Positions 362 through 63,896 of a stretch of 64,000 nt of DNA are shown piece by piece (positions within the stretch are counted from its first letter, which is position 1; every line of letters begins with the position of its first letter). The DNA comes from Trebouxia sp. TZW2008 (Eukaryota; Chlorophyta; Trebouxiophyceae; Trebouxiales; Trebouxiaceae), in assembly GCA_002118135.1 (NCBI GenBank), contig BDIU01000195.1:1-64000 (forward strand), given 5' to 3'. The notes under the pieces are model-generated. The model saw only the letters and a list, made by a program, of their open reading frames with translations, was not told the DNA's origin and did no database searches. The translations under genes were made by a program, and so were the position numbers.

Positions 362-3300
362 ATGCGAAGACTTGTGTCCACAGTCCGCAGGTAAGAGGTC
401 GCCTTGTCCGAGAGGTGTATGCATACTGCCAGATCACAGCAACAGCTGATCATCAGCCCGGCTGACCCTGCTTCCATCTGTAGTTGCAGGCGAATGGACA
501 CAGGAGGATTGGCAGAAGCAAGAGTGTATGGAGTTGTGCTGGATCAGACAGTGCTGGTGCCCCCAGCTCAGGGGTATCTTGGTGACTGTGGGAGTCTGCA
601 GCTGGTTGATCATGCGCTGGGTCCGCAAGTAAGCCTGTGCAATGTTGATGCAGCAGCCTCAAGTTGACAGAACTTGAACTGCCAAGCAGCTGGCATCACA
701 GATCACTTGTGCATGACTACTTGTATCAATGACGCCATCAAGCAAATCTGACTGACTGCTGACGAGTGCTCTACGAACAAGTTCACGCTGCATTGACAGG
801 TGAGGGTGTTGGGGGTCCAGCTTCTAGACGGAGAGACTGTTCATATTGTTGATACGCTACTGGTGGAGGGGCAGATGGTTCACGTCAGCCTTGATTGGAC
901 GCAGCGCTTTGACTTCCTGCAACAGCACACAGGTTCGTCTGCTGTCACTGGAAACAAGACCTAACTATTGAAGCGCTGTACAGCTTGTATGGTACACGGC
1001 GTCCCTGCTCTGTTTAATTTGCCGCTTGGTCTCATGCACGTCACAATTGGTGGAGAAACAGCTCCAGCTTGCGGTTGAATCCGGCACAAATCAGAATTTT
1101 GTTGTAAGCACGCATATATCTGCTGCAATTGCTGTTGCACATGGGCAGCCTTTAGCTATAGCCTATTGGTTCAGTCAAATCAGGGCCCGCTAAAACCGCT
1201 GAGGGACTAGTGCGCATGCAGTACTGCTTCTCATGGCATCTTGTCGATTGCCAGGGCTCAGCACTGCCACACTGCAGGCCAGGGAATGAGTGAGAATGAC
1301 TTCCACAGGACTTCAAGCTGCAACAGCAGGAGTCATGATCAATCTTGCTTTTGTCCTGGACAGCTTCACCAGCGTGTTTTTTGATGCTGCAGCCCAGCAT
1401 TTGCTCAATGGAGTGGCACTCAACCTCTTCAACAGCAGGACGACAAAATGGAGTTCTGTGCCAGGCCAACAGTTTGCTGCCTACATTGATGTCAAAGGAG
1501 CGAAGTTCACCGATGATGAGCTCAACAGACTGGAGAGAGGATGCAACGATGCTATCAATCTACATCTCCCAATCACACAGGCGCGTGTGAGGCAGCCAGG
1601 ACGACGCAATGGCTTGCAAGCAGATGACGCTGGCAGCAGCAATGAGGCTGAAGACCCTGCACCTCAGGTGAGATGTGTTGCATGTTGCTTTGATCAGGTA
1701 AGATGTATTGCATGATGCATTGGTGCTTTTGCTTTCCTCTATGTGTGATAGCAGGGGACTCTTGCGGCAGCAATGAGGCTGGAGACCCTGCACCTCAGGT
1801 GAGATGTGTTGCATGTTGCTTTGGTCAGGTGAGATGTATTGCATGATGCATCGGTGCTCTTGCTTTCCTCTGTGTGTGACAGCAGGGAACTCTTGCAGCA
1901 GCAATGAGGCTGAAGACCCTGCACCTCAGCTGGGAAGCGTTGCATGATACGCTTATGATGCTGCTTTCAAATGTGTAGGACAACAGGTGACGCCTGCAGC
2001 AGCAGTAAGGCTGAAGACTCTGCGCGTTAGGTGAGACATGTTGCATCTCAGACTAGTGCTCCTGCTTCCCTCTTCAGGATGCGGCATGCGACGCTTGCAA
2101 CAGCAAATGTGCTCGAGACATCGCGCTGTAACATGTTCATGTTGCGTTGGTAACCCAGCTTCACCAATATGAGATAAGGGCGGGTAGAAAACTTGCTGTC
2201 AATGCTCGTCTTCAACTTGTCTGCTTTCCTGGCACTTCTAAATTTTGTGCTTGCAGAAAATTTCCCCATCAACCTCAGTCAGAAAATCGCGTCAGTCAGT
2301 TCTGCTTGTGACAGCTGCTGCCATTTGCTGCAATTGTCTCTGCTGGAGCATTGCAAGAAAAATGTTTTAGCTAAATGCAGCACCATTTGCGCTGTTGACA
2401 TCATTGGTACATCATCATATTGTTGTAAGCACTTGCATATGACCCCAAGGACACTTTCCCTACGTCAAATTAGCCATCGTCAAAATTAAGACTGCAGACA
2501 GAAAGCTCTGACCTGTTTCCGATCATGGTGTCCTGACAGTAAAAACGTCTTTACAATGCTTACATGAAGAATGACCTTGTAAGAAGATATCAGCAGTAGC
2601 CTGTTCTGGTGTAGGCTACACCATGGATGACTGTTATTCAAGGTGTAGGAGCGGATCCCTGTGACAAGTTCCACCTTCAAAACACCAAGGAGCTCAGGGT
2701 GCTCAAGATTGTGGGCTGCAAGGAGCTATTCACTGTCAATGGGGATCGCACTGGTCAGAGCAGGTTGCACTTTCTGGCTGGGCAGCGATACTTGGGGTTG
2801 CTGGAATCTCTCCTGAACAAGCCAGAACTTCGCAGCAAGGTACTTGGAATGTTCATCTGGTTCTTCTGGCAAATTAGCAACCTGGTTGAGCATCACACCA
2901 GCGCCACAATTCACCATTGCTATTCCCAAACCCTGTTTGGTCGCTATGGGCAATACATCAGTCCTGAAGGATCCATGGCATGCGCTCATGATCCCGTGAT
3001 TGCATGCCGCACCTTGCAGCAGAGCTCATAAGTGTCACATATTGACAGTGAGCTGCATGCCTGCTGCTTGTGTCCAATGATGTTCTGCAAAGCTTTGTCA
3101 GGCTACAAGCTCATGCTGATCAAGCTTGTTGACAGTTGTGGACCCAGCTGATGGCAATGATGTTTTGTTGGGACTGCAGGCCTTCAGGTATGACACGAGC
3201 TTGCCGACCACTGCAGTTGAGCACGGCGTCGCCCTCGGCAAGCGTTCACTGCAAGGTGCCGTCTCATGCTGACTTGCTCTCGTTTTTCCTTTGCATATCA

Positions 3301-3671
3301 CGCATGGCATGGCAATCTCACCTTGAATCTTCCACCAATGTATCTTGAGATCGGATGACCACGCTTATGTTACCTCACATGCTCATGGGCATGACTTGCA
3401 CGACGGGCTCCTGCACATGCAATACCATGGCAATGCTACTGCTTGCTCTGTCATACACATTGATTGCGGCATCACATCATCAAGGCCTAAGCAAAGACTT
3501 TGTATGCATAGGCGGGGCAGACACATTCATTGGAAGGAACACAAATTTGCTTCATCTGTCTCGTGTGGCAAGTGTAGCAACACAGGTGGCTCCAGCCTCT
3601 GTGTTCTTGCTCTTTGCCACAAATGCTGGCTGCAACAAGGGCTGCTATGATTTCCTGATTGCATCGCCAGG
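362..3671 (+). CDS. Alanyl-tRNA editing protein, AARSD1/AlaX type (3' end unresolved)
   Basis: Free-standing editing domain that hydrolyses mischarged Ser- or Gly-tRNA(Ala) in the cytosol or an organelle. Exons 362-390, 490-628, 800-932, 1393-1667 and 2615-2839 join in phase to give 267 residues. Key matches are SLDWTQRFDFLQQHT running into AQHLLNG across an intron, which makes the zinc-binding HxxxH motif (HTAQH), and PCDKFH, the CxxxH motif that supplies the other two zinc ligands. LRVLKIVG and RLHFLAGQRYL also match the family. The start at 362 opens a 29-base exon and is the least certain point. An exon at 3136-3187 (DPADGNDVLLGLQAF) and another at about 3512-3671 (ASVFLLFATNAG) fit the family's C-terminal half, but their phases do not join the main model, so an exon is missing or misplaced. 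The usual Gly-rich GGGQP motif reads AQGYL here. Family assignment is firm; the 3' half is inferred. Confidence 0.8.
1641..2030 (+). repeat. Exon-end ladder after editing-protein exon 4
   Basis: The last 27 bases of exon 4 (ending 1667) recur almost unchanged with ends at 1798, 1929 and, more decayed, 2030. Spacing is 131, 131 and 101 bases. The intervening intron sequence is duplicated too: GATGTATTGCATGATGCAT appears in each unit. The first extra copy keeps its GT donor; the second has lost it (CAG followed by CT). Confidence 0.85.
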
Positions 3672-14500: not shown

Positions 14501-17500
14501 GCAGGGACTGGTTGAAGGGCATGGCGGCTCACATTTGCGTGAACAAACTACCACCCAGATGCCTAACCGTCTAAGCTCCATATCACTGCTAAGTGATGAT
14601 CAGAAGGCCTTGTTTGCCATTTTAGCTGAAGCGTCCAGACCCTCATCCAAGCTGTCCACTGATGAGCCACAAGGCGGGTATGGCACCTGGTCTGAAACCC
14701 CTACAGCCCCAGCTAAGCCGAGGTGGATTGAGCCACAGGGCGGGTATGGTACCTGGCCTGAGACCCCTACACCCTCAGCAGAGTTGTCCAGCGACAAGCT
14801 TGAGGGGTCATCCAGCAAACCAGCTGAATCCTCAATGCCCTCAGCAAAGCTGCACGGTGAGGAGTCACAGGGCGGGTATGGCACGTGGCCTGCAAGCCCT
14901 ACAACCTCAGCAAAGTCGCCCAGCGACAATCTAGAGGGGTTGTTTGGCGAACCAGCTGAAGCCTCAACACCCTCAGCAGAGCTGCGCAGTGGTGAGCAGG
15001 AGGGCCTGGACAAGAAGTCAGCTGAAGCTTTGTCAGCCTCAAACAAGCTGTCCAGTGACAAGCCACAAGGCTTTCACCGCAAGCCCGCTGGAGTCTCAAA
15101 ACCCTCACCGTTGCGCCCTGAACAGCTAGAGGGCCTGCGTCGCTCTTTCCCTACAGCCATGACGCTAGGAGCAGGGCTGTTCAGTAACGAGCAAGCTAGC
15201 TTTTGGGAACATACAGCTGAAGACTCAGCACCCTCAGCACAGCTGCACGATGATGAGCCAAAGGGCGTGTCTAGCAAAGCCATCCCCAATGCATCCAAGC
15301 TGTCTCGTGATGAGCTCGAAAAATGGTTTGACAACTTGGGCAGGACTCAAAGACAAGAGCAGGGATTGTTCAGGCTCCAGATGCCTAGGGGCACTCACCC
15401 CTGGACTCTCTCAGCACAGTCACTCCTTGAGGACTTCAAGGGCGGCTATAGCACATCGGCTGAAGCACTTGCACTCGCAACAAAGCCGCTCAGTAGTGCT
15501 CCCCAGACCAGGTTTGGCAATTGGACACAGACCTACTCGTCCCCACTTCAGCTGCAGCCTGAGTCAGAGAGAAATATCAACAGGCTGAATCGGTTCCATC
15601 CATCCTGGTCAGAAGCCCCTACAGCCCCACTCAAGCTACAACGTGATGAGTCAGGCAGGCTGACCTCTTCTGTAGGACTCTCAGCAAAGCCGCACAGCAA
15701 TGAGCCGCAAGGCGGTCATGGCTCTCGGTCTGAAACCCCTACACCCTCAGCAAAGCCTCTCAGCAATGAGCCATCGGAGGAGTGTGGGGATTTGACAGGA
15801 CCCTACTTGACGTTACCTCAGTGTGATGAGCTAGAGAGAATGTATGGCGGGATGATCTTCTCTCCTGAACGTTCAGCAAAGCCGCTAATCAATGAGCCAC
15901 AAGGCGGGTGTGGCACTAGGCCTCAAACCCCTCCACCCTCAGCAAAGTTGCTCAGCGATGAGCCCCTAGGCATGCATGGCAATTTGTCAGAAGGGGTCAC
16001 ACCCTCAGTAAAGGTGTCCTTTGATGAGCCACAAGTCTATGGCAGTGTGGCAGAAGCCACCACAGCAAAGCTACTTCACCCTGACCAGCCAGATAGCGTG
16101 TACGACACTCTGCCTGAACCCCTTACACCCTCAGCACAGCCACACCATCATGAGTCACAGGTCGACGGCAGTTTGGCAGAAGCAACCACAGCACAGCTGC
16201 ACAGTGATGCACCAGAAAGCGTGTATGACATTCTGCCTGAACTCCTTACACCCTCAGCAAAGCCACACCATGATGAGCCACAGGACTACGGCAGTTTGGC
16301 AGAACCAACCACAGCAAAGGTACACTTTGATGAGCCAGACAGCGTGGGTGACACTATGCCAGAACCCCTTACACCCTTGGCAAAGCTGTCATTTGACGAG
16401 CTGGAGGGCTTGTTTGGCAAGGCTAGTGCAGAGTGGGGTCTTCACCGGTTGCACTCAGCCAGTGCGGTCTCTCCTGACGCTCACAGGGCTCCAGAACCAC
16501 CCATCAGGAACAAGTCACTGCCGCACAGACGCTCCGGCTCGAGACTCAGTGAGAGCGAGTCTGAGGATGAGGCTCAACGTAGTCAACTGCTGCAAACTCT
16601 GGTTGTAAGAAGGAAGAGTCGTCAGCAGGCTGAATCTGTGGGTGATCCCATGTATGGGACGAGGTATAAGCTCGACAGCAGAGAGGATGAAGGACAGTCT
16701 TTCCTGATGTCATTGAATAAGGTCAAGACTCCTGAAAACATGGTGAGCGTTCCTACCAATTGTCACAGTTCTTGAGCTTGTGTGAGCGGTTTTACCAAGT
16801 GTGACAGGTTTTGAGCTTACATGTAGTCTCTCACCTTGCAGCGCTACGTTTCACAGGCAACATTGAGTCAGCTGGCGCACTCTCTCTTCCGTCGTATGTT
16901 GTGCGTGAGCTTGCATGTGACTTTTACTCATGTGCTCTTGTAGCATGTGAGTCCATAGATGTCAGTAGATCAGCTGGTGAGCACTTTGATCAATTGTGAC
17001 AGTGCTTGCGCTTGCGTGTGACTCTGACCATGGGTCCTTACAGCACACTCACTCACAGACATCAAAGATCAGCTGTTCTGGTGCCTTTTCTGTGCTTCTT
17101 TGTGCCTGGCTTGTGCCTCAAGTTTGACTTGTATTTAAGCCACGTGGCTTGCAGACATGCAGAGATCAGCTGTTGTGACTCTGCTTCTGTAGGTCAGTGC
17201 TTGCGCTTGCATGTCACTTAAACACAGGTGCTTGTGCACGATGTCGGTTCCACAGTACCAGATGAGCTGTTGTGATTCCTCAGTTGTGCTTCTGTGTGAC
17301 TGTGCTTCAGGATGCTACTTTTCATGGGCCCGTGTAAAGCAGCACTGTTGGTATCTCAGACTGCAATACATTAGCTGTTGAATCTGATTCCCATGTGACA
17401 TTATGTGGGATTGTATGTTGGCCAGTGCAGCCCAATGACTTCTATATATGTTGTTTACAATCAGCTCAATGGCTTCTGCTTTGCATTGGTGCAACCTGAA

Positions 17501-24871: not shown

Positions 24872-24902
<31 letters not shown>

Positions 24903-26011: not shown

Positions 26012-26033
26012 TTGAAGTCTGTGCAAATCAGAA

Positions 26034-26185: not shown

Positions 26186-26199
26186 GAAGGCTTGGCAAG

Positions 26200-48500: not shown

Positions 48501-50343
48501 AATTGACTGCAAAGTCAGTTCATAGGTGCCATGTTCTTGCTTGGTTGGAATGCAATGTGGCTGCGGCAACTCCACAGTGTTGTATAGGGCATGCAGCATC
48601 ACACAGACAGACAGAGGGATGCAGAATTCACATTATGCCTTACTGACTGCTTTGTGGGTTGGTGCATGCTTGCGCATTCTTGCTTGCAATGCATTGATTG
48701 GGTGCAGCACTGTGTGGGTAGCTTACACATGTACAGCAAAAAGGGAACTACAAGCAACGGATACGCAGGCAAGGGATTTGCAAGGCTGTAACCAACACCT
48801 CTGTCAAGCGCTGAAATGTTTTTGACACTTCGTCTTGCACTGCAGGTGGACCCCTGGGGCTGGAGGGGGCAAGAAGGGGGGTTGCTGGTTCAAGGTGCGC
48901 CAAGCCAGCCAAGACCTCCTCTTCATCCTCCTCTTCGCCATCATCCTCACAGGTCAGTCACACACTGCTTCTGCTACCAAAGAATTTGAAATGTGCCGCT
49001 CTGCAGCAGGAATTAGCTGTGTTGCAACAATGACAATGATCTGTGTCACCACATTTCAGGCACAGCATGAGGCCCATTTGTGATGCATCAGCTGCAGAGC
49101 AGTTGCATTGCGTACACTCTTTCGATGGCTTGACAGTATGCATCCATGGCATGTCAGCAGTTTCAGAAAGCAGAATGAGTGCAGTGACAATTGCCTACGG
49201 ATACCTCATGGTTCAGGTGATTTGTTGGGCCACTGGGCTTGTTCATCATTTAGCAAACATTCCTAGTGTCAAGAATTGTTACATTATGCGCTTAGTGTTA
49301 TAGATTCCGGTTTTCTGCTGGTCCTTTCTTGGGGCAGATTTGAGATCCACTGAAGTTGTCCATTTTGTGCTAGACTTAAATGAATACATTGCATGTTGGC
49401 AAGCTCTGGAACCAGAATCTGTGTCTGTGCAGTGACCATGGTGCTTACGGTTTTCTGGGGGTCATTTGGTGGGTCCCTTGGGCTTGTCTATCATGCAGTG
49501 CATCTACAAAGCATTGGTGCCCTGCGTTTTGTGTATGCAGTGACAATTGCATATGGGTTCCTGATGGTGATTGCTGGGGTCAAAGTTGTGGGTCCCTTGG
49601 GGTTGTTTATCACTTGAAGCATCTATCATCTATCATGCAATGGTGCCCTAAGTTCGTGTTGTGCGTATATGCAGTGATCATTGCGTATATGTTCCTGATG
49701 GTCTTCGCTGGGGTCGTGTTTGTGGGTCCCTTGGGGTTGTCCATCATGTGGTGCGTTTACCATGCCTTGACATCCTGACCTCATGTTGTGTATGTTTGCA
49801 GTGCCAATTGCTTATAGGTTCCTGATGGCGATTGTTTGGGGCATCCTGACCTCATAGTGTGTGTGTATGAGTGCCAATTGCTCATGGGTCCCTGATGGCG
49901 ATTGCTTGGGGCAAATTTGTGGGTCCCTTGGGTTTGCTTATCACGTCAAGCATCGATCATCTATCGTGCAATGGTGCCCTTAGTCCATGTTGTGTGTGTA
50001 TGCAGTGACAATTGCGTATGGGTTCCTGATGGTCATTGCTGGGGGCGTATTTGTGGGTCCCTTGGGGTTGTCCATCATGTGGTGCATTTACCATGCCTTG
50101 GCGCCTTGGCTACTCCTCTTCTACTCCATTCTGCCATTTGAGTTTGAGCCCATCTCCAAGAAGTGGGTGTACAAGACAGGGAGAGCGCTGTTCACTATTC
50201 TCTGTAATGTCGGCTTTTGCTGTTCCTTTGGGGTGTTTATAGCAGCTGTGGTGTTGGCCTTCATTGCTGGCGAGCACAGTTTTCTCCAGGATAGTATCAA
50301 CAATACACATCTCTCGCCCAAGCAAGTTTTCACAAACCTCTAA
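39598..50343 (+). CDS. Membrane glycosyltransferase family 2, cellulose-synthase-like (837 aa)
   Basis: Exons: 39598-39858, 40429-40641, 40928-41120, 41929-42089, 42949-43153, 44009-44355, 45125-45275, 47024-47181, 47519-47796, 48322-48423, 48846-48952, 50006-50343; all donors are GT and all phases close. Processive GT2 enzymes polymerise sugars from UDP-sugar at the cytosolic face and export the chain. The order is: a disordered Gly/Pro-rich N-terminus (residues 1-220); two membrane helices (about 230-300); the catalytic core with [14 protein letters not shown] (about 351), FDADQ (about 430), CAGTNF, TEDYAL (about 520) and QRSRW (about 557-561); and then at least five helices to the C-terminus (for example AIAYGFLM-like and [13 protein letters not shown]). 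All four catalytic motifs (D, DxD, TED, QxxRW) are intact, so it should be active. The product (glucan, mannan or other) cannot be told from sequence. It may build wall polysaccharide near the surface protein upstream, but no operon-like link is implied. Confidence 0.9.
40146..40335 (+). repeat. Decayed copies of the start of GT2 exon 2
   Basis: GCACCCAGCATCAGCGGCAG at about 40150 and GCACCCAGTAACAGCGGCAG at about 40291 repeat the head of exon 2 at 40429 with its CAG-rich run. Neither continues in frame to a donor. Confidence 0.8.
41198..41306 (+). repeat. Copy of the end of GT2 exon 3
   Basis: TGTGGGCCCCCAGCCGGGGT through GACTGCCATGGGCAG repeats the last 110 bases of exon 3 (ending 41120) and keeps a consensus GTGAGC donor. 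A frameshifting C insertion and a TGA (TCTGACTAG region) make it non-coding in the exon 3 frame. Confidence 0.85.
42145..42722 (+). repeat. Three decayed copies of GT2 transmembrane exon 4
   Basis: Exon 4 (41929-42089, encoding [17 protein letters not shown]) is followed by copies at about 42145-42274, 42366-42562 and 42620-42722. The first is still open through [16 protein letters not shown] and followed by GTCAGT. The last two carry frame changes. The first is long enough to mimic an extra membrane helix if spliced in, but no matching acceptor phase was found. Confidence 0.85.
42776..42832 (+). repeat. Decayed copy of the start of GT2 exon 5
   Basis: TTCAGGTACTGGGAGCGACA mirrors the acceptor and head of exon 5 at 42949, ending at a TAA where the true exon continues. 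Confidence 0.85.
43240..43745 (+). repeat. Exon-edge copies between GT2 exons 5 and 6
   Basis: At 43245-43322 lies a copy of the end of exon 5 (GCTGCCAAGATTGCTATGGA, then CAGGCAAATGCA). At 43616 lies a copy of the start of exon 6 (GTGCACATCTATGTGATGAT..), first of the exon 6 ladder. The CTG run at about 43338-43360 separates them. Confidence 0.85.
43815..43970 (+). repeat. Second decayed copy of the start of GT2 exon 6
   Basis: Copy heads at 43616, 43815 and the true exon at 44009 are 199 and 194 bases apart. The 43815 copy retains most of TGTGATGACGGCCC and AACAGCTCATAGATCAG, but has lost bases in frame. Confidence 0.85.
44785..45040 (+). repeat. Exon-start ladder before GT2 exon 7
   Basis: TAG-acceptor copies start at 44785 and 44950, 165 and 175 bases apart, ahead of the true exon at 45125. 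Both contain TCTGGCACT and GCAGCC blocks but carry stops. Confidence 0.85.
45362..45600 (+). repeat. Exon-end ladder after GT2 exon 7
   Basis: The exon 7 end (GCTGGAACCAACTTTGTCAT, then GCAGAAGCAG and GTGCTG, true end 45275) is repeated with ends near 45445 and 45600. The first copy is almost identical. CTTCTTCT-rich intron text is carried in each unit. Confidence 0.9.
45780..45914. repeat. Tetranucleotide microsatellites (CATC/CGTC)n and (GAAT)n
   Basis: 45780-45840 is a CATC/CGTC tetranucleotide array; 45855-45914 is about 15 perfect GAAT units. Both lie in the intron between GT2 exons 7 and 8. Confidence 0.95.
46158..46520. repeat. Minisatellite of about six 60-bp units
   Basis: Units contain CTGTCATTCATCCAGCC, TTCCAGACCAGAGCAAGTTG and CATGACAACGTACCACC with moderate divergence. 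Same intron as the GAAT array. Not related to an adjoining exon edge, unlike the ladders. Confidence 0.85.
46793..46812. repeat. Short (GAT)n microsatellite
   Basis: About six GAT units just upstream of the first copy of GT2 exon 8. Confidence 0.8.
46827..46920 (+). pseudogene. Decayed upstream copy of GT2 exon 8 (TED motif exon)
   Basis: Encodes [20 protein letters not shown] after a good acceptor, nearly identical to the true exon at 47024, then reaches a TAG after HVND. A further fragment near 46961 (GGCTACCTGCGCACC..) is more decayed. Confidence 0.9.
47241..47455 (+). repeat. Edge copies around GT2 exons 8 and 9, with (TGCTG)n array
   Basis: 47241-47300 repeats the end of exon 8 (AAAGTGCGCGCTGCCT..TCACGCTGGTGCAAG). 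47304-47391 is a (GTGCT)n array of about 17 units. 47418-47450 repeats the start of exon 9 (CTGCAGGGTCCGCATCAGAT). The array seems to have grown from the GGTGCAAGG context. Confidence 0.85.
48206..48270 (+). repeat. Decayed copy of the start of GT2 exon 10
   Basis: TGCAGGGCGAAGAGAAGTGC follows the pattern of the true exon head at 48322 (GGCGCATTGGAATGCAGAGG) with about 70 percent identity. Confidence 0.6.
49185..50005 (+). repeat. Six-copy exon-start ladder before the last GT2 exon
   Basis: Heads resembling TGACAATTGCGTATGGGTTC start at 49185, 49433, 49541, 49675, 49802 and 49872, before the true exon at 50006. Most also carry GGGTCCCTTGGG and a CATCATG block. Spacings are 248, 108, 134, 127, 70 and 134 bases. 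The copy at 49675 is the closest to the true exon. None extends into the 3' part of the exon. Confidence 0.9.
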
Positions 50344-53980: not shown

Positions 53981-56900
53981 ATGATCTCGAACTTGACGCA
54001 CAGCCCGGCGCAGCCTTTGAATCTCGGCACGGCTGCACGCCGTGGTGCGCAACCGCGCAGTGTCAGCACCTGCCGGTATTGCAGGTGTCAAGCCTCAAAA
54101 ACTGGGTCAACCGTATCAAACACCACCAAGCTTGGCCGACCAGGTGTGCATAGCTCACACTTCGTGAGCTTGCTCATCATTGCATACTCGTCCAAATCAA
54201 GGACGATGTGCTCGGCCGCATGCACTCCCAGGGTCGATCTTGTCACACATCACACTTGTTTGGCTGTGATCAGGTGTAGAAGTCAGCAACGTTGGCATTG
54301 GCACCTGGAGCTGGGCAGACAGGTGCCCCAAATGTCTCTTCTGGACAGCCCACAATCGGATTGCCATGTGCAGTGCAGTGTTGTTCCAACCTCAATGCTG
54401 CATTTGTTCTTGACGATTGTCCTTACACCCATTTGCCCTTACTCAGAAGCACCAATGCAGTCAAGACCAGAATCAAGTGATTGATTTGCAGTTGCCTTGG
54501 TCTTACAAAGAATCTTCTTGCGCTTTTTGTCCTTACATCAAGAGAACACTGTGCATGACTTGACATGCTTGATGTCCTTTTTTCGAGAGGATACTGTGCA
54601 TAGTTCATTATTGAATGCTTGATGCAAACATTGCTGCATCGCAGGTGGGGCTACTGGGGCTATGGGGATACATATGGCAGGCCTGAGAATGAGTCAGCAT
54701 ACGCAGCAACACTTGACTCTGACATGACTTTCTGGGACACAGGTCCGATGTTGCCCTTTCTTCTCCTTCAAAATGATCACACAGCCATATCAGCCAGCTT
54801 GACACATGTTGACAACATACAAAGACTGCTTGTCTGACCAAATGATGATCAAGAGAAGCATGCCTTCTTGCACTTCAAGCCTGAATGTTGGCATCGAGCA
54901 ATGCTGGTGCTCATCTGAAGACAGCGCAGCTGGCAATAGGGGCATCACAACGACAATGAGAAAGAGACACATCAGCTTTCGTACAACTTCCTATTGATGG
55001 GCATGTGGCAAATCCTTTTGCCAGCAGTAATGGATGCTCAAAACCCGCCTAAGCAAGACATCTCTCCGAGGCTGTCTGCTGGATCTGCAGCTGAGATGCA
55101 TGGCTTTGGATTCAAGCTTGCTTGCTGACTGTGTTGCTGACCTATGGCTTTGAATTTATTCCAGCTTGCTGCGCCTAAGTTTATGGCAAGTCAGTGGAGG
55201 TCCTTGGGATTATTTTCAAGTTTGTCTGATGACTGTGCAGCTGAGGTCTATGGCTTTGTCAAGTGTCTTGGGGATCACCTCAAGATTGTCTGCCAACTGT
55301 GCAGCTGGCAAAACACAACATGGGTCAAACACACCTGGCACCTGTGCTAGAACATGTCAGCTGTCGTTTGCATGACTCTCACTGTGTGCAGCAGAATCTA
55401 TGGTTCTGGCAAGTCCAAGGAGTTTCTGGGGGACTTCATCAGGCAGTCAGGCCAAAGTCAAGTCATGACTAAGTACATGTGTCTCATCTCTGTGTCAATA
55501 AGCAATGCTCAATGAAACTCTTCAAATGTGCAGCTGAGATCTATGGCTTTGGCAAGTCTGAGGAGTTCCTGGGGGAGTTCATTAGGCATACAGGCAGCCA
55601 GGACAAAGCTAAGGTGGCCACCAAATTTGCGCCGCTGCCCTGGCGCTTCACCTCACAGACTGTTGTGGACGCCTGCAAGGTACTTCCGCCTGCTCTTCTG
55701 CATCTTTTTCTGCTCTTCGTCTTCTGGTATTCTTCTTCATCTGTTCTTCTTCTTCTTCATCTGCTGATTGTGTGTATCTTAAGACTGCCTTGGCGCTTCA
55801 CCTCTCAGACTGTTCTGGACGCCTGCAAGGCACTACCTTTTGGCCTCATTCAGTCTGTCAGGACACAACTGCTGTGAGGTTGTTCAACATCTGTTCACCC
55901 TGCCCTTCTGCTCTTCGTGTTCTGCTTGCGTAATCTAATTGTTGATTAGGGGCTTCACCTCCCGGATTGTTGTGGACGCCTGCAAAGTGCCTTCTGCTGC
56001 TCTTCTTCAGTCTGTCAGAACGCCTTTGTATGATGCCCTGGCGGCAATTGTATGCATACTTCTTACACCCTGTTGGCCCAGTGTGCGACTTGCAAGATGT
56101 CAGCACAGTCCAGAAACCGTATCACAGTTGGTTTTCCAACCAGCTCGCCTTGATCATCTTTGAGGACGCTTTGCTATTTGGCAAATCTGTCTATGAGTAC
56201 ACCCACAGGTGCATGCATGCAATTGATCTCTGTTCACTTCGTGTGCTGTTGCTTTTGGTGATGATGCACACAGTCTCTTTGGTCAGTAGTCAATTCACAT
56301 GATACAAGGGAGGCTTGCCTGTAAGCATCAGCCAAGCTTTGACTCGGGCTTGTTTGGATTTGACACGTCATGGTCCTGATACTACTGCAACCCCAACCAG
56401 ATTCCATCTTGCCTCCAGGATTAATCTCAATCCGCAGTCCTCATGCCCTTGCAACATGCATATAAATTGATCCGGGAGTGTACATGTAATGCAGGGTAGC
56501 TTGCAGCGGCTGCAAATCCCAAAGCTAGCTCTATACCAAATTCACTTCCCAGCCACTTTCCCAAACCTGTTTGCCAATACGGCGTTTGTGAGGGGCTTGG
56601 CAACCTGTCAGCAGAATGGCTTGACTGAGGCTGTGGGTGTGTCAAATTTCAACGCAAAGCGTCTCAGAGATGCTCATCAGACACTTCAGGTATTGCACAT
56701 GCCTGACCACAATTGTAATGCCTAATTGGATCTGCACGAGCTAGTTCTGTATCAGATCCACTTCCCAGCCACTTGGCCCAAACTCATTTGCTGACACAAG
56801 TTTTGCAAAGGGTCTGGCCACTTGTCAGCAGAATGGCCTGACTGAGGCTGTGGGCGTGTCAAACTTCAACGCAAAGCGCCGTCAAGAAGCTCAGCAGACA

Positions 56901-59900
56901 CTTCGGGTATTGCCCATGCCTGACATTGAGCATTGCAGTGCATGATTGGATCTGAACAGCAAGCTCTAATCACATCCACTTTCTCAAACCTTCATGCCAA
57001 TTTGGCGTGTGTGAGGACTCTGGCAACCTGTCAGCAAAATGGCTTGACTGAGGCTGTGGGTGTGTCAAAATTCAATGCAAAGCGTCTTGAACAAGCTCAT
57101 CAGATGTCGCATGAGTGAGCGTGCCTGACATTGAGCATTGCAACGCATGATTGCATCTACACAACTTATCATCTGCATAGATAGGCAGGTCTCCATGCAG
57201 CGAACGACACATGGAGTGCTGACACGTCGCTCAGTCGCAATCTGTCCACTCAGCAACACTGACAACGATGATAAATGACAATGGCAATGTAAGATAAAGA
57301 TGCAGTACAGTCACAGATAGCCCGGCGATTGTGTGCTGCCTCACGACACCAGCTGTCTCTACAGTCAGCCTGGCTTTGGACTATGTATAACAGTGCTTGA
57401 ATGAAGGGACGCCAACTTTTGTGCGCTGTTTGTGACCTTGACCTCAGGGCATCCAACCAGCACAGCAGTGTCAATCAATGGTTCATTCATTGTCATCTGT
57501 ACTGGGCAGCAAATGAGTGGTTGAGTGCTGGCCTGGTACAGTGTGCTGCTGTGAGTTATTCCATCCACTTACTTGAGTACAGCAAAGATATCCATGTGAC
57601 CAGTATCATGTGACATTGACAGTGAGCACATGTTGTGCGAGCATTGATAGATCGAGTAAGTCTCACATGGGCTGCTTCAAGCTTTCATTGCTGCATCGCA
57701 ACGTTTGCTCACTGAATCATGATTCTTAAAAGCTTTGTTTTGGCCGTTGATGAGCCGGAAAGCAGCGCTTTAGACAGCAACAACAAACATCTGCGCCACT
57801 TTTGGCCCAGAATAAGTGAACAGCTTGTTTGAAGGATGGCACTTCGTTTCTTGATAGGCAAATCAGAACAGAGTTACCCCTAGGGTAATCACAAGCCTGA
57901 CCATGGCAAGAGCAAAAGCCTAGGAACAGCGAATCACCATAGTCTAACTTTCACTTGTCAATACTTCAAAATACTTGCACGATGTGTATTACATAATGGC
58001 ATCAGCATGTTGTGTATTACGTATCGGCGTCAGCATATTGTGTATTTCGCAGTTTGCGCTATATCTCAGTGAACCACTTTCTCAAGTTGCATGTGTTGTG
58101 TATTATGTATTGAGTATTGCGCACGGTGATCCCTGCCTTGGAACTTGAGTAATAGCTGAGCAGCGTTGTTGATTTTCAGCTGCTCCCAAGGGGGCACTAG
58201 CCTCAGCAGAGCTCCCTGCTCATGATTACAAAGAGCTGTGTAGCTTGACATACTCGTTCGTACTCATAAGCTATGAGCCTTACACCTGTTGCATTACATC
58301 TTTGATTTCAATGTGCTGATCTGCATCAAGGTCTGCCTTTCAGGCTTAGCTCCCAGCAAAGCACTGGGCCTCATGAATTTGCAAGGAGTCAATTTGGCCT
58401 CAAAACAGATCAAGTACATTTTGCTGCATCAAACCGGATCAATTGGGCTTGCATGATTAAGGGGTGGGTTGGGCGTCAAATCAGGTGTGGTACAGCTGAC
58501 TGTGTCGAGTCCCTGGCGAGAACGGGGAGCTGAAAGATTGTGATGATCAAGAAGCAAGCTGACCCTGAAATCATGAGCAGAGCAACCCACTTCGTAAAAG
58601 AGGCTGCTTGGCTTCGCAAGATCAAGGAGTGGACTTGGCGTCAAATTAGGTGCAGTACAGCTTGCTGTACAGAACCCCTGAGAGGACTGGGCTTGCATCA
58701 AAGTCTCCTGTCACCCAGAATGTCAGTCAGACTGAAAACGCAGCACTGCAATAGACCAGACCGACTGACTGTGCAGGATCAAGGGGTGGACTTGGCGTCA
58801 AATCAAGTACAGTACAGCTTATTGTACAGAGCTCCTGAGAGGAATGGGGTGCTGAAGGTCTGCCAGGAGTTGGGAATCACCCTCATTGCCTACTCTCCCC
58901 TCTGCCAGGGCTTGCTCACAGGTCAGCAGAAAGCCCTGTAGTAATTGCAATTCAATGTCTCATGTCCGGATTTCAGAATGTGTGGAGCAGTGTTTCCTCT
59001 ATCTCCTGAGAGGAACAGGTTGTTGAAAGCTTGTCAGGAGTTGGGGATGACCCTCGTTGCCTACTCAACCCTCTGCCAGGGCTTGCTCACAGGTTAGCAG
59101 AAGGGCATACTGCGCCTGTTAATCAGTGCTTTGGTTTCTAAATGCCAGATATTGCTGACAGTTCAGCAAGGGTGCTGAAGGCATGCCAGGAGTTGAGAAT
59201 CACCCTCATAGCCTACTGTCCCCTCTGCCAGGGGCTTGCTCACAGGTGAGCCCAAGCCTTGTACCAATCGCAACTCAATGTCTCATTTTTGGAACTCAGA
59301 ATGTACAAAGCAGTGTTTTCCTTGTTCCCTGGGAGAGATGGGTCGCTGAAGGTGTGCCAGGAGTTGGGAATCACCCTCATTGCAGACTCCCCATTGAGCC
59401 AGGGCTTGCTCACAGGTCAGTCAAAGCTCTGTAGTGATTGCAATTCAACATATCTTGTGGGGAACTCAAAATGTGTGGAGCAGTGTTAACGCTATCTCCT
59501 GAGAGGAACTGGTTGTTGAAAGCTTGTCAGGAGTTGGGGATGACCCTCGTTGCCTACTCACCCCTCTGCCAGGGCTTGCTCACAGGTTAGCAAAAGCGCT
59601 TGTCGCTGCTGGTAGTCAGCGCTTTGCTTTTTGTATTGTTTACAGTTCAGCAAGGGTGATGAAGGTCTGCCAGGAGTTGGGAATCACTCTCATTTCCTAC
59701 TCTCCCCTGTATCAAGGCTTGCTTACTGGTCAGCATGTCGTGTCAATGCGTCAGCAATCACTGCTGATGTTGATGAACGGGATCATGTAGCTTTTACTGC
59801 CTAATTGCCTGCCCTCACCTGTGCCAGGGTCTGCTCACAGGTCAGCATTGCATGCAGACCAGACGCTGCTCATGTTGCTTTTGCCTGCAAACAAGCTTGT

Positions 59901-61080
59901 CAGCCTCAGCCCAAAACTCTTGAAGCTGCAGATAGCAAGCTGGGTTGGTTTGCTCACAACAATAACAAGAAATTTAGACAGAACCAATTGACATATGGAG
60001 CACGCAGATTTTGATCTGCAGGCAAATCTGATGGCATTAACAGCCCCAAAGGGGCTGGGGGGGTACTTTTTGCCAAACATAAATCATCACCAAAATTGAA
60101 TGTACATGCATGACAATTGTCTGTCTTGCAGGCAAGTATGATGGTAACAACAATCCTAAAGGGGCGAGGGGGGCGTTGTTCACCAAGAGTAAGGCCCAAG
60201 CCGTGCAGCCCCTTATACAGCTGATGAGGGAGATTGGGCAGAAGCAGGGCGGCAAAACCCCTGCCCAGGTTGCCATCAACTGGTGCCTCTGCAAGGGTAC
60301 CTTGCCCATTCCAGGTTAGCTGCTTGCTGTGTGTGTCTTGAAATGTTTCTGCACATTGCTTGGTGTGTGTGTTGGAGTACGAGCGCAGAAGCAAGGCAGC
60401 AAAACTCCTGCTCAGGTTGCTATCAATTGAGGTGTCTGCAAGGGAAACCTACCCCATCCCAGGTCAGCTGCTTGCTGTGTGTGCTTTGAAGCGTTTCTAC
60501 CACTTGCTTGCTGTGTGTGTATTGGGGTACAAGGGCAGAAGCAGGGCAGCAAAACCTGTGAACAGCAAAATCCCTGTCCAGGTTGCCATGGTGCCTGTGG
60601 TCCTGTACCCATACCAGTCAAGCTGATGCTACACCGTGACAAATTGCATGTGCATAGCTTTGATGTTTGGGACTGCAGACCTTCTGAAGCTCAAGACATC
60701 ATACAATATCAGCTGATGCCTCCAGCTTTCTGTTGGCTGATTGTTGTGTGTGCCTTGTATGGGTTCTATTGGCTGCTTGAGGTGTATATTTGATGGCTAT
60801 TGGTGGCTGCTTGCCGTGTGTGTAACTGCAGCTGGGTTCATCTGCCAGGTGCTGGGAAGTTGCGTCAGAGAAATTGTCATCATTCACTCGTCATTATCGT
60901 ATAGCACGAAAATGGACATTCAACTTTGTCACAGGTGCCAAGGATGCGAAGCAGGCTAAAGAAGCAGTAGGAGCCTTGGGCTGGCGCCTCACACCACAGC
61001 AGTGCCGTGCTCTGGAAGCCACTGCAGACAGCATTTCACGAAATGACATTGCGTTCAGCGCTCCCTTTGAAAAGTGGTAG
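53981..61080 (+). CDS. Aldo/keto reductase, plastid-targeted type (374 aa)
   Basis: Exons: 53981-54143, 54274-54322, 54645-54742, 55534-55679, 56495-56689, 58777-58921, 60132-60314, 60935-61080; phases close exactly. NADPH-dependent reduction of carbonyl substrates on a TIM barrel. Residues 1 to about 48 are Ser/Thr/Arg-rich like a chloroplast transit peptide. The barrel follows: [18 protein letters not shown], then FWDTAEIYG with the catalytic Asp (about 101) and Tyr (107), VATKFAP (Lys about 134), LYQIHFP (His about 169), [33 protein letters not shown], and [10 protein letters not shown] for the NADP phosphate. All four catalytic residues are present. Closest in kind to plant plastid reductases related to At1g06690 and to pyridoxal-reductase-like proteins; the substrate is unknown. 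The 2.1-kb intron before exon 6 and all shorter ones from exon 3 on carry decayed exon-edge copies. Confidence 0.93.
55091..55470 (+). repeat. Exon-start ladder before reductase exon 4
   Basis: Copies of GCAGCTGAGATCTATGGCTT start at 55091, 55241 and 55392, before the true exon at 55534. Spacing is remarkably regular at 150, 151 and 142 bases. The last copy extends to about 55450 (GGAGTTTCTGGGGGACTTCA); the first is the shortest. Confidence 0.9.
55785..55990 (+). repeat. Exon-end ladder after reductase exon 4
   Basis: The exon end (TGGCGCTTCACCTCACAGAC..GCCTGCAAG, true end 55679) recurs with ends at 55829 and 55986, 150 and 157 bases apart. Donors are degraded to GC and GT-like GTGCC. Confidence 0.9.
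56738..57115 (+). repeat. Two copies of reductase exon 5
   Basis: Large copies of exon 5 (56495-56689) end near 56905 and 57115. Both retain GAGGCTGTGGGTGTGTCAAA or a one-base variant, but have frameshifts in the first half. Confidence 0.9.
57116..58375. other. Intron 5 of the reductase, unique sequence
   Basis: No exon, RNA gene or exon copy recognised. A GTGTATTACGTAT-like motif is repeated loosely at 57985-58120. Confidence 0.4.
58380..58700 (+). repeat. Exon-start ladder before reductase exon 6
   Basis: Copies of the head (AAGGGGTGGACTTGGCGTCA) start near 58380, 58459 and 58622, upstream of 58777. The nearest continues through GTACAGCTTGCTGTACAGAA and CCTGAGAGGA before diverging. Confidence 0.85.
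59004..59840 (+). repeat. Six-copy exon-end ladder after reductase exon 6
   Basis: The exon end (CAGGAGTTGGGAATCACCCT..CAGGGCTTGCTCACAG, donor at 58922) is repeated with ends at 59092, 59245, 59415, 59585, 59728 and 59840, at spacings of 171, 153, 170, 170, 143 and 112 bases. All keep GT after the exon end (GTTAGC, GTGAGC, GTCAGT, GTTAGC, GTCAGC, GTCAGC). Several still encode [10 protein letters not shown]. Confidence 0.92.
60013..60075 (+). repeat. Decayed copy of the start of reductase exon 7
   Basis: TGCAGGCAAATCTGATGGCA, then CCCCAAAGGGGCTGGGGGGG, mirrors the exon head at 60132. Confidence 0.85.
60385..60618 (+). repeat. Two copies of the end of reductase exon 7
   Basis: The exon end (true end 60314) recurs with ends near 60463 and 60616, both starting GCAGAAGCA(A/G)GGCAGCAAAA. 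The first has an in-frame TGA (CAATTGAGG) and keeps GTCAGC; the second has an insertion and a later break. Confidence 0.9.
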
Positions 61081-61084
61081 ATTA

Positions 61085-61170
61085 TGCAGCAAGGATCTAG
61101 AAGCTACTGTTGACAGCATTCAAGAAATGACTTTGCATCCAGCGCTGTTCTGGGGCAATGGCAGATCTTG
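61085..61170 (+). repeat. Decayed copy of the last reductase exon's 3' end
   Basis: GATCTAGAAGCTACTGTTGA, then CAGCATTCAAGAAATGACTT, repeats the exon end just upstream of the stop at 61078-61080, placing a copy directly after the stop codon. Confidence 0.85.
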
Positions 61171-62126
61171 TTGCACCTGTGTTTACATATTTGTGTCCGT
61201 GTACTGAATGTTCCTGGGGTTTGTATTCCGCTGTGGGCTGTTGCTTGCATTGTATCAGGGTCTAGAGTTTCCTGTGTGCTGTTGCTTGTGGTTTATGCCT
61301 AAAATACTATTCTTCCATCTGCATTCTTGGGAGGCAATCATGCGATTCAGTAAAGTTTGCTGCACATTGCGCTTATGGCATTGTTAATGACAGTCATGCC
61401 AGCCTCGTGGTTGCTGTACGACATACATTACCTGTACGCTATACATACCATTGGTCTGCTATGCACACGTGGGCAGAACGACACTGCGCCAACCATCGTT
61501 GAGTGCATATTGATGTTGCCTGCATATGCTTGATGTCGTTTCTGGAAATTCGCACACAATGGAAGTCCCAAAGTGCTATATCGCAGACATTACCACATCA
61601 AGGAGAACCTTTGTGTTGAAGTCTGAAAGTGCCTGCTGACGTCTTGCACATACGGACGCAACTTTACATTCTGGAAACATAAGATTAAGTTACAAGATTT
61701 AAAGTTCAGCTATACAGGAGAGTCTACTTCACAGGGGAAAAGATCAGGACAGTGCTCTGAGAGCATACCTGAAAGAGGTACACCTAAAAGACGGATCAAA
61801 ACCATAAACCCACTCATGAATAAAATACAGAAAATAAACACGATGGTATGCCCTTCAAACACCGAATGCATGCAACTAAAGCCTCAACAAGGTGGGCGCT
61901 ATGTTAACATTAAGCATAAGTCCTGGCTCAAAGCTCAAACTGAATCAAGACCAAAAAACTTAGCGAGCTTGCAAATTAGCATACCAACACTATCAAAAAA
62001 GTTTCTGTAATCGCTGCTGTCCAAGCTGAGAAGCTGCAACCTGACCACAAGCCGCAACTAGGGCTGTACCTTCCCTGCTGTACAACACCAAAGACTAATG
62101 TGCTGCTGAAGGAACAATACATGCAG
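61171..62126. other. Convergent 3' region between reductase and WSS1-like gene
   Basis: No coding exon supported. The stretch 61680-62010 is richer in A than the surroundings and contains a chance A-rich open frame. Confidence 0.4.
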
Positions 62127-63896
62127 CTAGATGGTAGGCCTGCTTAAATTGGGCACACCATAGCTGTACTTCCAACGAAGACACATAGCACAGTGTGTCA
62201 ATGCTGATGCATTGACAACAGAGCAAAATTTGCAGACCCAGCTGTCCGACTGAAAATCAAAAGGTCTGACTTGACCGCATGCAGCACACTGCAAGCAAGA
62301 ACTTTTATTCAACAAAGTGCAGGTGCTGCATTCCCATTCATCAACCGGCATGCTTCTTTCATCTGCCTGTGGAGGTTCTTCACTGTACATTGTTGGGGCT
62401 AGAAATATCCTGTTGCTGAGGTCATCATGATTGTCAAGCCGTGTGCGCTTTGTATCTGGCTGATGAAGTGGTGAGGGTCCTGGGTCATCTGTCACGTCGA
62501 CAACATCCTCAAAAATTTGTTCTGCAGTACTCTTGACACCAGATGCGTGCAGTATCTGCTCCTGCTGCTGCAGCTGCTGCTGTTTCTGCTCATGCTGCTG
62601 CAGCTGCTGCTGCTGCTGTTGCTGCTTATGCTGATGCTGCTGGTGCTGCTGCCGCTGCTGCGCATGTGACTGCAAGTTTTCCCTTGCAGCTTGGGTTTTG
62701 CTGCTAGAGCAATCTTGATCATTGGCAATCTGGGCCTGTTGTGTTGAGGGCGTCTGTCCGGGGTGGTGTGAAGGGTCTACCACAATGACGTCATCATCAT
62801 TGTTGTACTGGATGTCAGTGCCGTGGTCACATGGGCACCACACGTTGTCTCTGGCCCGCCTCTCAGCTGCCCTAGCAGCCGCCTGCAATCAACAATGATT
62901 ATCAATGGCATGCAGCCAGTTTCGCTTGGGTCTCAAGATTTGACAGGCTGTATCAAGCAATGATCAGATTTGCAATGAGCTCATTGCTTTGCTTGCAGTG
63001 AACAATGATAACGTGAGGCATCAAGTCGCTTGCTTGGCAGTCATGTCGCACCAATACACAGACTGCGCCAGATACTGGTCAGGTTTGCTGTGGGCTCATT
63101 GCTTTGCTTGCAGGGACCAATCATGACATGAGGCACTCAGCCACTTGCTTGGCAGTCATGTCACACCAATGCACACACTGTGCAGGCAATGATCATATTC
63201 GCACTGAGCTGACTGGCTTGCATGCAGTGAACAATGATAACTTGAACAAAGTTCCTCATACACCTCAAAGCATGCCTATGGAATCTGCTGTACTGCACCA
63301 AGATGGGAACCTGTACCTGAGGTGATTGGCTTGGTTGCAGTGAACCATGATGGTTTGAGTACAGTGCCTCATACACCTCAAAACACGCCTATGTAATCTG
63401 CTCTGCTGCACAAACATGTGAATGTGTACCTGAGCTGGTGTCAAGCCTTTGAGCAAGGTGACATCTCCTCCAAGCTTTCTGGGTCCAGATGGCATCACGG
63501 CTTGCTGTTTCATGCGGGCCTCAGCAGCCTGCAAACTCCGAGAAGATGCCATAGTTTATTGAAAACAGTGCACAACTAGCAAGACCTTTTTCACGTGGGC
63601 CTCTGCAGCCTGCACAGCCCCAGGAAATGCGACAGTTGAGCAAAATCAGAAGCCCTTTGAGAAGTTGTGGCATGCAGGCCTCTACAGCCTGCACATGGTC
63701 AGGAAATGCAATGAACAATGATTGGACAGACAGTGAGAGCTTGAGCACGACTGACCTTTAGGGCTAAGCTCTTCGCCTGGTGTGAGGGAGGGTTGTGAAT
63801 TGGGACAGGGCCTCTACCACCCAGCCTTCCCACAGAGGCGGCATCAAAGCCAACACCACTGCCTGAAATGCCCTTTGACATGAACCCCTCACATTC
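62127..63896 (-). CDS. WSS1-like DNA-protein-crosslink protease, C-terminal part (N-terminus beyond window)
   Basis: Minus-strand exons 63756-63896, 63430-63528 and 62127-62882, all phase 0, give the last 331 residues. The WLM metalloprotease domain itself (HExxH) lies past the right edge; what remains is its tail (ECEGFMSKGISGSG, then GRLGGR, then MPSGPRKLGGD, then AAARAAERRARDNVWC), which is diagnostic of WLM/WSS1 proteins. The last exon adds a SUMO-interacting motif (DDDVIVVDPS), a Gln/His-rich run and two RanBP2-type zinc fingers (WECSTCTLLNKSSCLQCAAC and WVCKFCSVVNASALTHCAMC). Known family role: proteolysis of proteins crosslinked to DNA with help from SUMO and Cdc48/p97, in the nucleus. 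The last intron and the one before it contain duplicated exon-edge units as in the other genes. Confidence 0.85.
62560..62662 (-). repeat. Coding (CAG)n poly-glutamine tract
   Basis: Imperfect CTG/CAG array within the last exon of the WSS1-like gene, read on the minus strand as Gln with His and Glu interruptions. Confidence 0.85.
62990..63440 (-). repeat. Tandem intron/exon-edge units in the WSS1-like gene
   Basis: GCTTGGCAGTCATGTCGCAC and CTTGCAGTGAACAATGATAA blocks repeat at about 62995-63180. Units with CTCATACACCTCAAAGCATG and GTGTACCTGAG repeat at 63236-63440. On the minus strand the last contains the CAG/GTAC donor edge of exon 63430-63528, so these are copies of that exon's end plus intron, about 110 bases apart. 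Confidence 0.7.
63590..63710 (-). repeat. Exon-start copies upstream of the 63430-63528 exon
   Basis: GGCCTCTGCAGCCTGCACA (about 63599) and GGCCTCTACAGCCTGCACA (about 63683) repeat the acceptor edge of the exon (GGCCTCAGCAGCCTGCAAA near 63520), read on the minus strand as intron tail plus first codons. Spacing is about 80 bases. Confidence 0.75.

What the first reader, a model, noticed from the sequence alone, without database searches (positions are those of the whole stretch)
1641..63710. Window-wide ladders of duplicated exon edges inside introns
Seen: more than 30 introns, in six different genes on both strands, contain one to six tandem, decayed copies of the exon edge they adjoin. A copy always includes the splice site plus 25-170 bases of exon, together with neighbouring intron. 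Copies of an exon start lie only upstream, copies of an exon end only downstream, and the coding copy stays intact. Spacing is mostly 100-220 bases, often near 150-170, close to a nucleosome repeat (a coincidence or a clue). Known: tandem duplication containing AGGT is one proposed route to new introns, and exon duplication is common, but a genome where almost every exon edge carries a ladder is something I do not recognise as described. Inference: a recurrent local duplication process targets or tolerates exon-intron junctions and inflates introns. It may also provide decoy splice sites or a pool for new exons.
Basis: partly seen in the sequence, partly recalled or inferred. Interest (0 to 1): 0.92.

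Follow-up and report, generated by a model that had tools for sequence, protein, structure and literature searches.

The report
Exon-edge copies piled inside introns
In this lichen-type green alga, short stretches of DNA have been copied next to themselves again and again, and where such a copy crossed the border of a gene's coding piece the spare copy ended up, apparently harmless and decaying, inside the neighbouring intron, so that introns grow out of scraps of their own gene.

Summary
In two genes whose exons I fixed with homologous proteins (a GT2-type glycosyltransferase and an aldo-keto reductase), 15 of 17 introns carry copies of an adjoining exon edge; exon-derived sequence fills 24% of their intron bases (control 0.1%). 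Polarity holds with few exceptions. Elsewhere it is common, not universal: 77 of 222 predicted introns in 250 kb of the same genome.

A junction-targeting process is not needed. Local direct repeats, mostly 60-220 bp apart, cover exons, introns and sequence outside gene models alike (14.6, 11.7, 11.1%). Copy frequency falls with distance into the exon much as random units predict. Repeats within a single exon keep frame (49 of 51, but only six exons); edge copies do not. Best explanation: random short tandem duplication filtered by selection on the mRNA; polarity is the geometry of a tolerated tandem duplication.

Unsettled: the intron-derived part of the copies is far more decayed than the exon-derived part (38% recognisable, about 85% expected under my neutral model). 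Introns may decay about threefold faster, or some copies are exon-bounded. The organism is a Trebouxia-like green alga. The duplicating machinery is unproven.

The parts
39604..50343 (+). Glycosyltransferase family 2 / cellulose-synthase-like gene, 12 exons modelled (5' end not settled): 39604-39858, 40429-40641, 40928-41120, 41929-42089, 42949-43153, 44009-44355, 45125-45275, 47024-47181, 47519-47796, 48322-48423, 48846-48952, 50006-50343
   Evidence: tblastn of P0001/P0003, splice sites read, homologs 84-85% and 76% identical
54270..61080 (+). Aldo-keto reductase gene, 7 exons modelled (first exon incomplete): 54270-54322, 54645-54742, 55534-55679, 56495-56689, 58777-58921, 60132-60314, 60935-61080
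   Evidence: tblastn of P0009/P0010; PDB relatives; best named homolog Trebouxia sp. C0009, 75%
1393..2046 (+). Predicted AlaX-like gene (PF07973, below the curated cut-off): exon 1393-1667 and copies of its end downstream at about 1750, 1881 and 1984 (131-bp period)
40134..40494 (+). Two upstream copies (40134, 40273) of the start of exon 40429
   Evidence: 83-86% identity to the exon copy
41020..41311 (+). Downstream copy (41199-41311) of the end of exon 40928-41120
   Evidence: 83% identity
41950..42769 (+). End of exon 41929-42089 and four downstream copies (42137, 42366, 42457, 42617)
   Evidence: first copy 92% identical over 142 bp
42773..42998 (+). Upstream copy (42773-42828) of the start of exon 42949
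   Evidence: 88% identity
43076..43322 (+). Downstream copy (43243-43322) of the end of exon 42949-43153
   Evidence: 80% identity
43597..44161 (+). Two upstream copies (43597, 43796) of the start of exon 44009
   Evidence: 76-78% identity
44778..45224 (+). Two upstream copies (44778, 44943) of the start of exon 45125
   Evidence: 75-91% identity
45200..45616 (+). Two downstream copies (45368, 45524) of the end of exon 45125-45275; the first differs at 1 of 76 exon bases and also shares about 16 intron bases
46819..47116 (+). Upstream copy (46819-46918) of the start of exon 47024
   Evidence: 81% identity
49180..50108 (+). Ladder of upstream copies of the start of the last exon (50006), from 49180 on
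55083..55595 (+). Upstream copies (55083, 55234, 55385) of the start of AKR exon 55534
   Evidence: 84-94% identity
55635..56021 (+). Downstream copies (55785, 55949) of the end of AKR exon 55534-55679
   Evidence: 70-82% identity
56523..57158 (+). Downstream copies (56739, 56970) of the end of AKR exon 56495-56689
   Evidence: 76-84% identity
58446..58856 (+). Upstream copies (58446, 58610) of the start of AKR exon 58777
   Evidence: 74-87% identity
58832..59847 (+). Six downstream copies of the end of AKR exon 58777-58921 (59003, 59170, 59328, 59496, 59654, 59800)
60238..60589 (+). Downstream copy (60385-60555) of the end of AKR exon 60132-60314, intron part also homologous, and a further decayed one near 60533-60589
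   Evidence: 82% identity over a 171-bp alignment
14615..16418 (+). Repeats inside one large predicted exon (14505-16742); all 27 pairs counted are spaced by multiples of 3

Best explanation
The genome of this Trebouxia-like alga accumulates short direct head-to-tail duplications of about 60-220 bp, roughly anywhere. A duplication inside an exon survives mostly if it keeps the frame. One that crosses an exon-intron border is nearly neutral as long as the copy still joined to the rest of the exon is the one spliced, so the spare copy of an exon start must lie upstream and the spare copy of an exon end downstream, inside the intron. Repeats of the event build ladders. Spare copies then decay as non-coding DNA while the working exon stays put, so exon-derived parts remain recognisable longest and make junctions look targeted. 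Each event adds about one unit to the intron. Shown here: direct, local, size-limited repeats throughout the sampled genome; polarity; frame kept within six single exons but ignored at edges; frameshifts, stops and lost splice dinucleotides in the copies. Inferred: that the events are random in position, that they are repair or replication errors, and which errors. The likeliest machinery is fill-in of staggered nicks or breaks (patch-mediated repair), with mis-processed Okazaki flaps as the alternative.
For: Direct repeats cover 30.1% of the window and about 12% of 25 sampled loci, 0% of one shuffle each (12% is my arithmetic). 209 of 247 independent nearest pairs lie within 250 bp. 450 direct versus 14 inverted local matches, 12 of the 14 self-palindromes. 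Repeat cover in the 25 loci: exon 14.6, intron 11.7, outside gene models 11.1%. Spacing divisible by 3: 49 of 51 pairs with both copies inside one predicted exon (44 of 45 in 3 window exons, 5 of 6 in 3 exons of the loci), against 36 of 103 edge and 39 of 108 non-exon pairs. Right versus wrong side 30 versus 6 of 142 and 29 versus 5 of 172. Copy frequency by 40-bp tile into the exon falls 1.81.38.21.17 (ends) and 1.79.31.27.05 (starts) against 1.65.34.14.04 expected. Exon-versus-copy divergence by codon position .116/.096/.221 in 79 pairs, 49 of 52 gaps frameshifting, stops in 10 of 52 gap-free copies. GT kept in 26 of 38 and AG in 30 of 42 copies, near the .72 that .85 identity per site gives. 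Fourteen clean tandem pairs (copies abut within 9 bp) exist.
Against: Identity falls sharply at the splice site: about .85 in the exon part, about .62 in the intron part, about .55 in controls (45 pairs). Under a neutral model with equal rates 85-86% of intron parts should be recognisable; 35 of 91 are. Matching that needs introns to decay about 3 times faster. Between two spare copies, both intronic, the exon-derived part is also better kept (.785 versus .603, control .507, 41 pairs). Inside gene models of the sampled loci edge pairs outnumber intron-only pairs 61 to 16 although eligible positions are about equal for a 150-bp unit. Third-position excess is stronger than simulated (.106 to .221 observed, about .09 to .14 simulated), position 2 is only .057 in the anchored genes, and private changes in copies lean to third positions (107/70/123 in 24 ladders). 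The wider class of pairs in which both copies merely touch predicted exons shows no frame bias in the 25 loci (10 of 27) nor when arrays are counted once (11 of 27); it is probably contaminated by spare copies called as exons, but that is my reading. One copy (45368) is 99% identical in its exon part but stops matching well 16 bp into the intron.
Confidence: 0.66

Rival explanations
1. Exon-biased copying: short patches of an exon edge plus its splice site are made, or refreshed by gene conversion from the working exon, preferentially over intron sequence, so copies are exon-bounded and separated by unrelated spacer.
For: Sharp identity step at the splice site; 38% of intron parts recognisable where about 85% is expected; copy at 45368 with a 93-bp near-identical tract followed by strongly diverged spacer; edge pairs 61 versus intron-only 16.
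Against: No mosaic of converted tracts within exon parts: 3 of 94 alignments with p<0.05. Many copies do share intron bases beyond the consensus and some have well-kept intron parts (L028, L011, window 60314). Repeats are as dense outside gene models. Free patch insertion should put many copies on the wrong side of short exons; 5 versus 29 were seen.
Confidence: 0.2
2. The copies are functional: alternative or poison exons, decoy splice sites, or a kept pool for new exons.
For: Some copies keep an open frame over 22-47 codons and changes lean to third positions.
Against: 49 of 52 gaps shift the frame, stops occur in 10 of 52 gap-free copies, GT/AG are kept only in 26 of 38 and 30 of 42, edge spacings ignore frame, and by eye the homologous proteins fetched lack the extra segments.
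Confidence: 0.05
3. Introner-like or other mobile elements fill the introns.
For: Introns are enlarged and repeat-bearing.
Against: Only 1.6% of locally duplicated bases resemble any other sampled locus, and cross-locus similarity covers 1.8% of 314 kb.
Confidence: 0.02
4. Assembly artefact.
For: Only 3 of 239 nearest pairs within 50-500 bp reach 95% identity, so near-identical tandem copies may have been collapsed; there are 2 N at 33831-33832.
Against: Copies mostly differ by 5-35% and carry frameshifts; mis-joined reads would give identical copies. Local repeats recur in 23 of the 25 sampled loci.
Confidence: 0.03

Closest known systems
Natural short tandem duplications in rice ascribed to patch-mediated break repair (Vaughn and Bennetzen 2014, not held; seen only as summarised in PMC7407515, section 21)
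   Same: Tandem or partly tandem insertions of 10-1000 bp, templates within 200 bp of the break; here direct copies mostly within about 220 bp.
   Different: Here decayed copies that make up 6.7% of sampled intron bases as exon-derived sequence. Breakpoint chemistry not shown here.
[quoted passage not shown] potato RdRp, PMC4974935, start of abstract seen; AGGT model recalled)
   Same: Tandem duplication of exon sequence with splice signals, one copy becoming intronic.
   Different: There a new intron arises within an exon; here existing introns are enlarged from either end.
FEN1/Rad27-linked small inverted triplications at Okazaki-fragment scale (PMC13334657, passages read)
   Same: Unit size about 150 bp.
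   Different: Those contain an inverted copy; here 450 direct versus 2 non-palindromic inverted local matches.
Tandem exon duplication / mutually exclusive exons (recalled)
   Same: Exon copies beside the exon.
   Different: Copies seen here are mostly partial and decay as non-coding.
Introner elements (recalled)
   Same: Repeat-derived intron sequence in an alga.
   Different: Little sequence shared between sampled loci.

Membership tests
Short local tandem duplication (replication or repair error) | Copies direct, head to tail, close by | tested here: met
   450 direct, 14 inverted; 209 of 247 within 250 bp; 14 abutting pairs
Short local tandem duplication (replication or repair error) | Whole unit homologous, exon and intron part alike | tested here: inconclusive
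   Intron part recognisable in 35 of 91, fewer than the neutral simulation predicts
Patch-mediated duplication as described in rice | Copied sequence comes from within about 200 bp | tested here: met
   Spacing falls off above about 200 bp; the breaks themselves are not seen
Patch-mediated duplication as described in rice | Formed by nicks, fill-in and end joining | not testable with these tools
   Needs fresh events or repair mutants
Intron gain by proto-splice-site duplication | New intron at a position intron-less in relatives, bounded by a duplicated AGGT | not tested
Small inverted triplication | Direct-inverted-direct structure | tested here: not met
Introner elements | Similar sequence in many unlinked introns | tested here: not met
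   1.6% overlap with cross-locus similarity in 314 kb
Alternative or mutually exclusive exons | Copy keeps frame and splice sites | tested here: not met
   49 of 52 gaps frameshifting; GT 26 of 38, AG 30 of 42

The most novel reading that the evidence does not exclude
A local copying process in this alga acts preferentially on exon edges: it pastes an exon end or start plus its splice site into the adjoining intron, or keeps refreshing such copies from the working exon, so that introns are built largely from exon-bounded copies of their own gene.
Probability: 0.17. Interest if true: 0.85.

Novelty: new variant of a known kind. Interest (0 to 1): 0.62.

Why it matters
It makes intron growth directly readable: each ladder records size-limited duplication events next to a constrained reference copy, so unit size, rate, decay and selection can be measured in one genome. 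It also offers natural tests of how splicing picks the working site among similar decoys 100-200 bp away, and of whether short tandem duplications follow nucleosome or Okazaki spacing. If copying proves exon-biased, it would be a new kind of intron-building process. A gene predictor working from sequence alone, such as mine, takes some spare copies for exons.

Tried and rejected
Pfam scan of two frames of the first 15 kb with stops read as X found nothing. A first gene finder collapsed into spurious micro-exons and was replaced. That one still took some spare copies for exons, so the two anchored genes were re-modelled by hand from protein alignments. No relative of the glycosyltransferase in viral contigs. 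One control was faulty for exon starts (it could match itself); searches replaced it. One search was a script error. Gene conversion was tested by permutation and not seen. Simple neutral decay was simulated and does not fit the intron parts. Microhomology at breakpoints: the 14 clean pairs overlap by -6 to +9 bp, too few to judge. Literature: nine searches of an open-licence library; in the titles and abstract openings listed I saw none that describes exon-edge ladders in algal introns. I read passages or single sections of four papers only, and subscription papers were not searchable, so absence from print is not shown.

Rows dropped before counts: introns under 120 bp (150-200 in some tests); exons under 30 bp; genes scoring under 25 (edge counts) or 15 (coverage); low-complexity matches; codon-position counts of genes whose start is cut off. 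The 25 sampled loci lie on 16 contigs, 11 of which had come up in a splice-motif search, so they are not a random sample.
Full report
What was checked. The window is C187:1-64000 of a 68.5-Mb, 527-contig genome. A glycosyltransferase encoded at 39.6-50.3 kb is 84-85% identical to two unnamed proteins on short contigs (3.3 and 3.7 kb, probably transcripts, my inference) and 76% to a protein of Trebouxia sp. C0009 with locus tag ABBQ38_001719; the aldo-keto reductase at 54.3-61.1 kb has its best named match in the same organism, tag ABBQ38_001718, 75%. Consecutive tags suggest that the two genes are neighbours there too, and the organism is a Trebouxia-like green alga. Ribosomal RNA could not be searched.

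Local repeats. Self-comparison found direct repeats over 30.1% of the window and 0-34.8% of 25 other 10-kb stretches, 16.0% of 314 kb in all, against none in one shuffle of each. Nearest-copy spacing is broad between 60 and 210 bp and falls off above about 200; 209 of 247 pairs lie within 250 bp. Larger units should be easier to detect, so I take the upper limit as real. Matches are direct: 450 against 14 inverted, of which 12 are self-palindromes. Only 1.6% of the locally repeated bases resemble another sampled locus, so they do not look like a mobile family.

Exon edges. With exons placed from homologous proteins, the glycosyltransferase (12 exons) and the reductase (7 exons) show the ladders vividly: at the stricter cut 42 copies at 18 of 34 edges, and exon-derived sequence in 14 of 17 introns, 24.0% of intron bases, control 0.1%. 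The edge search, which includes 30 intron bases, gives 15 of 17. The clearest case is the reductase exon ending at 58921, followed by six copies of its end. For the sampled loci I used a self-trained gene finder; its translations include recognisable conserved proteins (names such as SufB and complex I 75-kDa subunit are my reading, not a search), but it misses genes and sometimes takes copies for exons. There, 77 of 222 introns have an edge copy and 6.7% of 89,496 intron bases are exon-derived, control 0.1%. Loci differ (p=0.0007): L017 has none in 10 introns, L027 4 of 5.

Polarity and geometry. Copies lie on the predicted side: 30 of 142 tests against 6 of 142 on the other side for exons of 180 bp or more (wrong-side control 1 of 142), 29 against 5 of 172 for exons of 80-160 bp. 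This follows from geometry: in a tandem duplication across a border only one copy remains joined to the rest of the exon. How often a stretch of exon has a copy falls with its distance from the border much as expected for randomly placed units of the observed sizes; beyond 200 bp the rate is 0-5% in small samples of 12-52 tiles, where the model expects next to none.

Targeted or tolerated? Unmasked, sampled loci: 44 of 215 donor and 48 of 210 acceptor edges (20 and 23%) against 19% of 683 intron segments; anchored genes 59 and 71% of 17 each against 52% of 132; other window genes 30 and 26% of 23 each against 45% of 134. After masking exon-derived copies: 71 of 368 exon-edge tiles (19%) against 81 of 708 intron tiles (11.4%); anchored genes 20 of 33 against 16 of 71; other window genes 9 of 32 against 41 of 126. 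Repeat cover in the loci is 14.6% in exons, 11.7% in introns, 11.1% outside gene models. Edge pairs exceed intron-only pairs 61 to 16 within gene models, where eligible positions would give about equal numbers. Slower decay of exon-derived sequence, because only one of the two copies is free to drift, could give an excess of this order (my inference); so targeting is not required, but it is not excluded.

Selection filter and fate. Where both copies lie within one predicted exon, 49 of 51 spacings are divisible by three, but these come from only six exons, three of them in the window. At edges 36 of 103 and outside exons 39 of 108 are. A wider class, both copies merely touching predicted exons, gives 28 of 47, yet 10 of 27 in the loci and 11 of 27 when each array is counted once; copies touching different predicted exons give 11 of 42, as if many were spare copies mistaken for exons. 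Exon-versus-copy divergence by codon position is .116.096.221 in 79 pairs; 49 of 52 gaps shift the frame and 10 of 52 gap-free copies contain a stop. A third-position excess is what a drifting copy plus a silently evolving exon would give, though my simulation gave a weaker one (about .09.09.14) and position 2 is only .057 in the anchored genes. Splice dinucleotides decay with the rest: GT 26 of 38, AG 30 of 42. So the copies do not look kept as exons or splice sites. Their lean to third positions (107/70/123 in 24 ladders) may come from successive copying of an exon that itself changed silently; this is not settled.

What does not fit. Identity steps down at the splice site, from about .85 to about .62 (control about .55; 45 pairs). 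Under neutral decay with equal rates 85-86% of the intron parts should be recognisable; 35 of 91 are, which would need intron sequence to decay about three times faster. An earlier version of this test with a stricter measure gave 14% of 65 observed against 62-71% simulated. Between two spare copies the exon-derived part is also better kept (.785 versus .603, control .507). Gene conversion leaves no mosaic (3 of 94), although one copy (45368) looks recently re-copied. Copies with a well-kept intron part exist. I read this as faster and more indel-rich intron decay plus later rearrangement of spacers, with exon-biased copying as the live rival.

Mechanism and literature. Direct, short, near-tandem copies from within about 200 bp match the description of patch-mediated repair in rice, which I saw only as summarised in PMC7407515 section 21. 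Inverted triplications of similar size tied to FEN1 and Okazaki fragments (PMC13334657, passages) show that errors of this size exist, but the inverted arm is missing here. Intron gain by tandem duplication is known in Drosophila (PMC2891723, passages) and potato (PMC4974935, start of abstract). The Asterochloris genome paper, on a lichen alga of the same order (recalled), reports an average of 9 introns per gene; the passages I saw mention no such ladders (PMC6652019, passages). The processes are known in kind; a genome in which about a third of sampled introns carry scraps of their own exon edges I did not find described in these searches.

Verdict. Observation confirmed, with the corrections given. 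Interpretation partly supported: recurrent duplication inflating introns, yes; aimed at junctions, not shown. New variant of a known kind.

Noticed in passing
window 39604-61080: Glycosyltransferase and aldo-keto reductase genes are neighbours here and have consecutive locus tags (ABBQ38_001719, 001718) in Trebouxia sp. C0009: probably conserved gene order.
   Followed up: partly
window 14615-16418 and 21284-21785: Repeats inside predicted exons, all counted pairs spaced by multiples of 3 (27 of 27 and 6 of 6): the same duplication process may be lengthening proteins in frame.
   Followed up: partly
25 loci L009-L033: Very uneven repeat load: L017 and L018 0%, L015 and L023 over 30% of bases, without an obvious cause.
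   Followed up: no
all loci, nearest pairs: Identities pile up at 75-90%; only 3 of 239 nearest pairs reach 95%. Either the process slowed, or the assembly collapsed young copies.
   Followed up: no
window 42080-42290: The first spare copy has a donor (GTCAGT) nearer the consensus than the presumed working donor (GTTTGT at 42090): a test case for how the splice site is chosen.
   Followed up: no
window 33649-34896: Stretch of about 188-206-bp tandem units in a region without a usable gene model; the window's only two N (33831-33832) lie there.
   Followed up: no
window 6964-7065, 47301-47395, 45778-45918: Microsatellites (5-bp and 4-bp units) besides the ladders.
   Followed up: no
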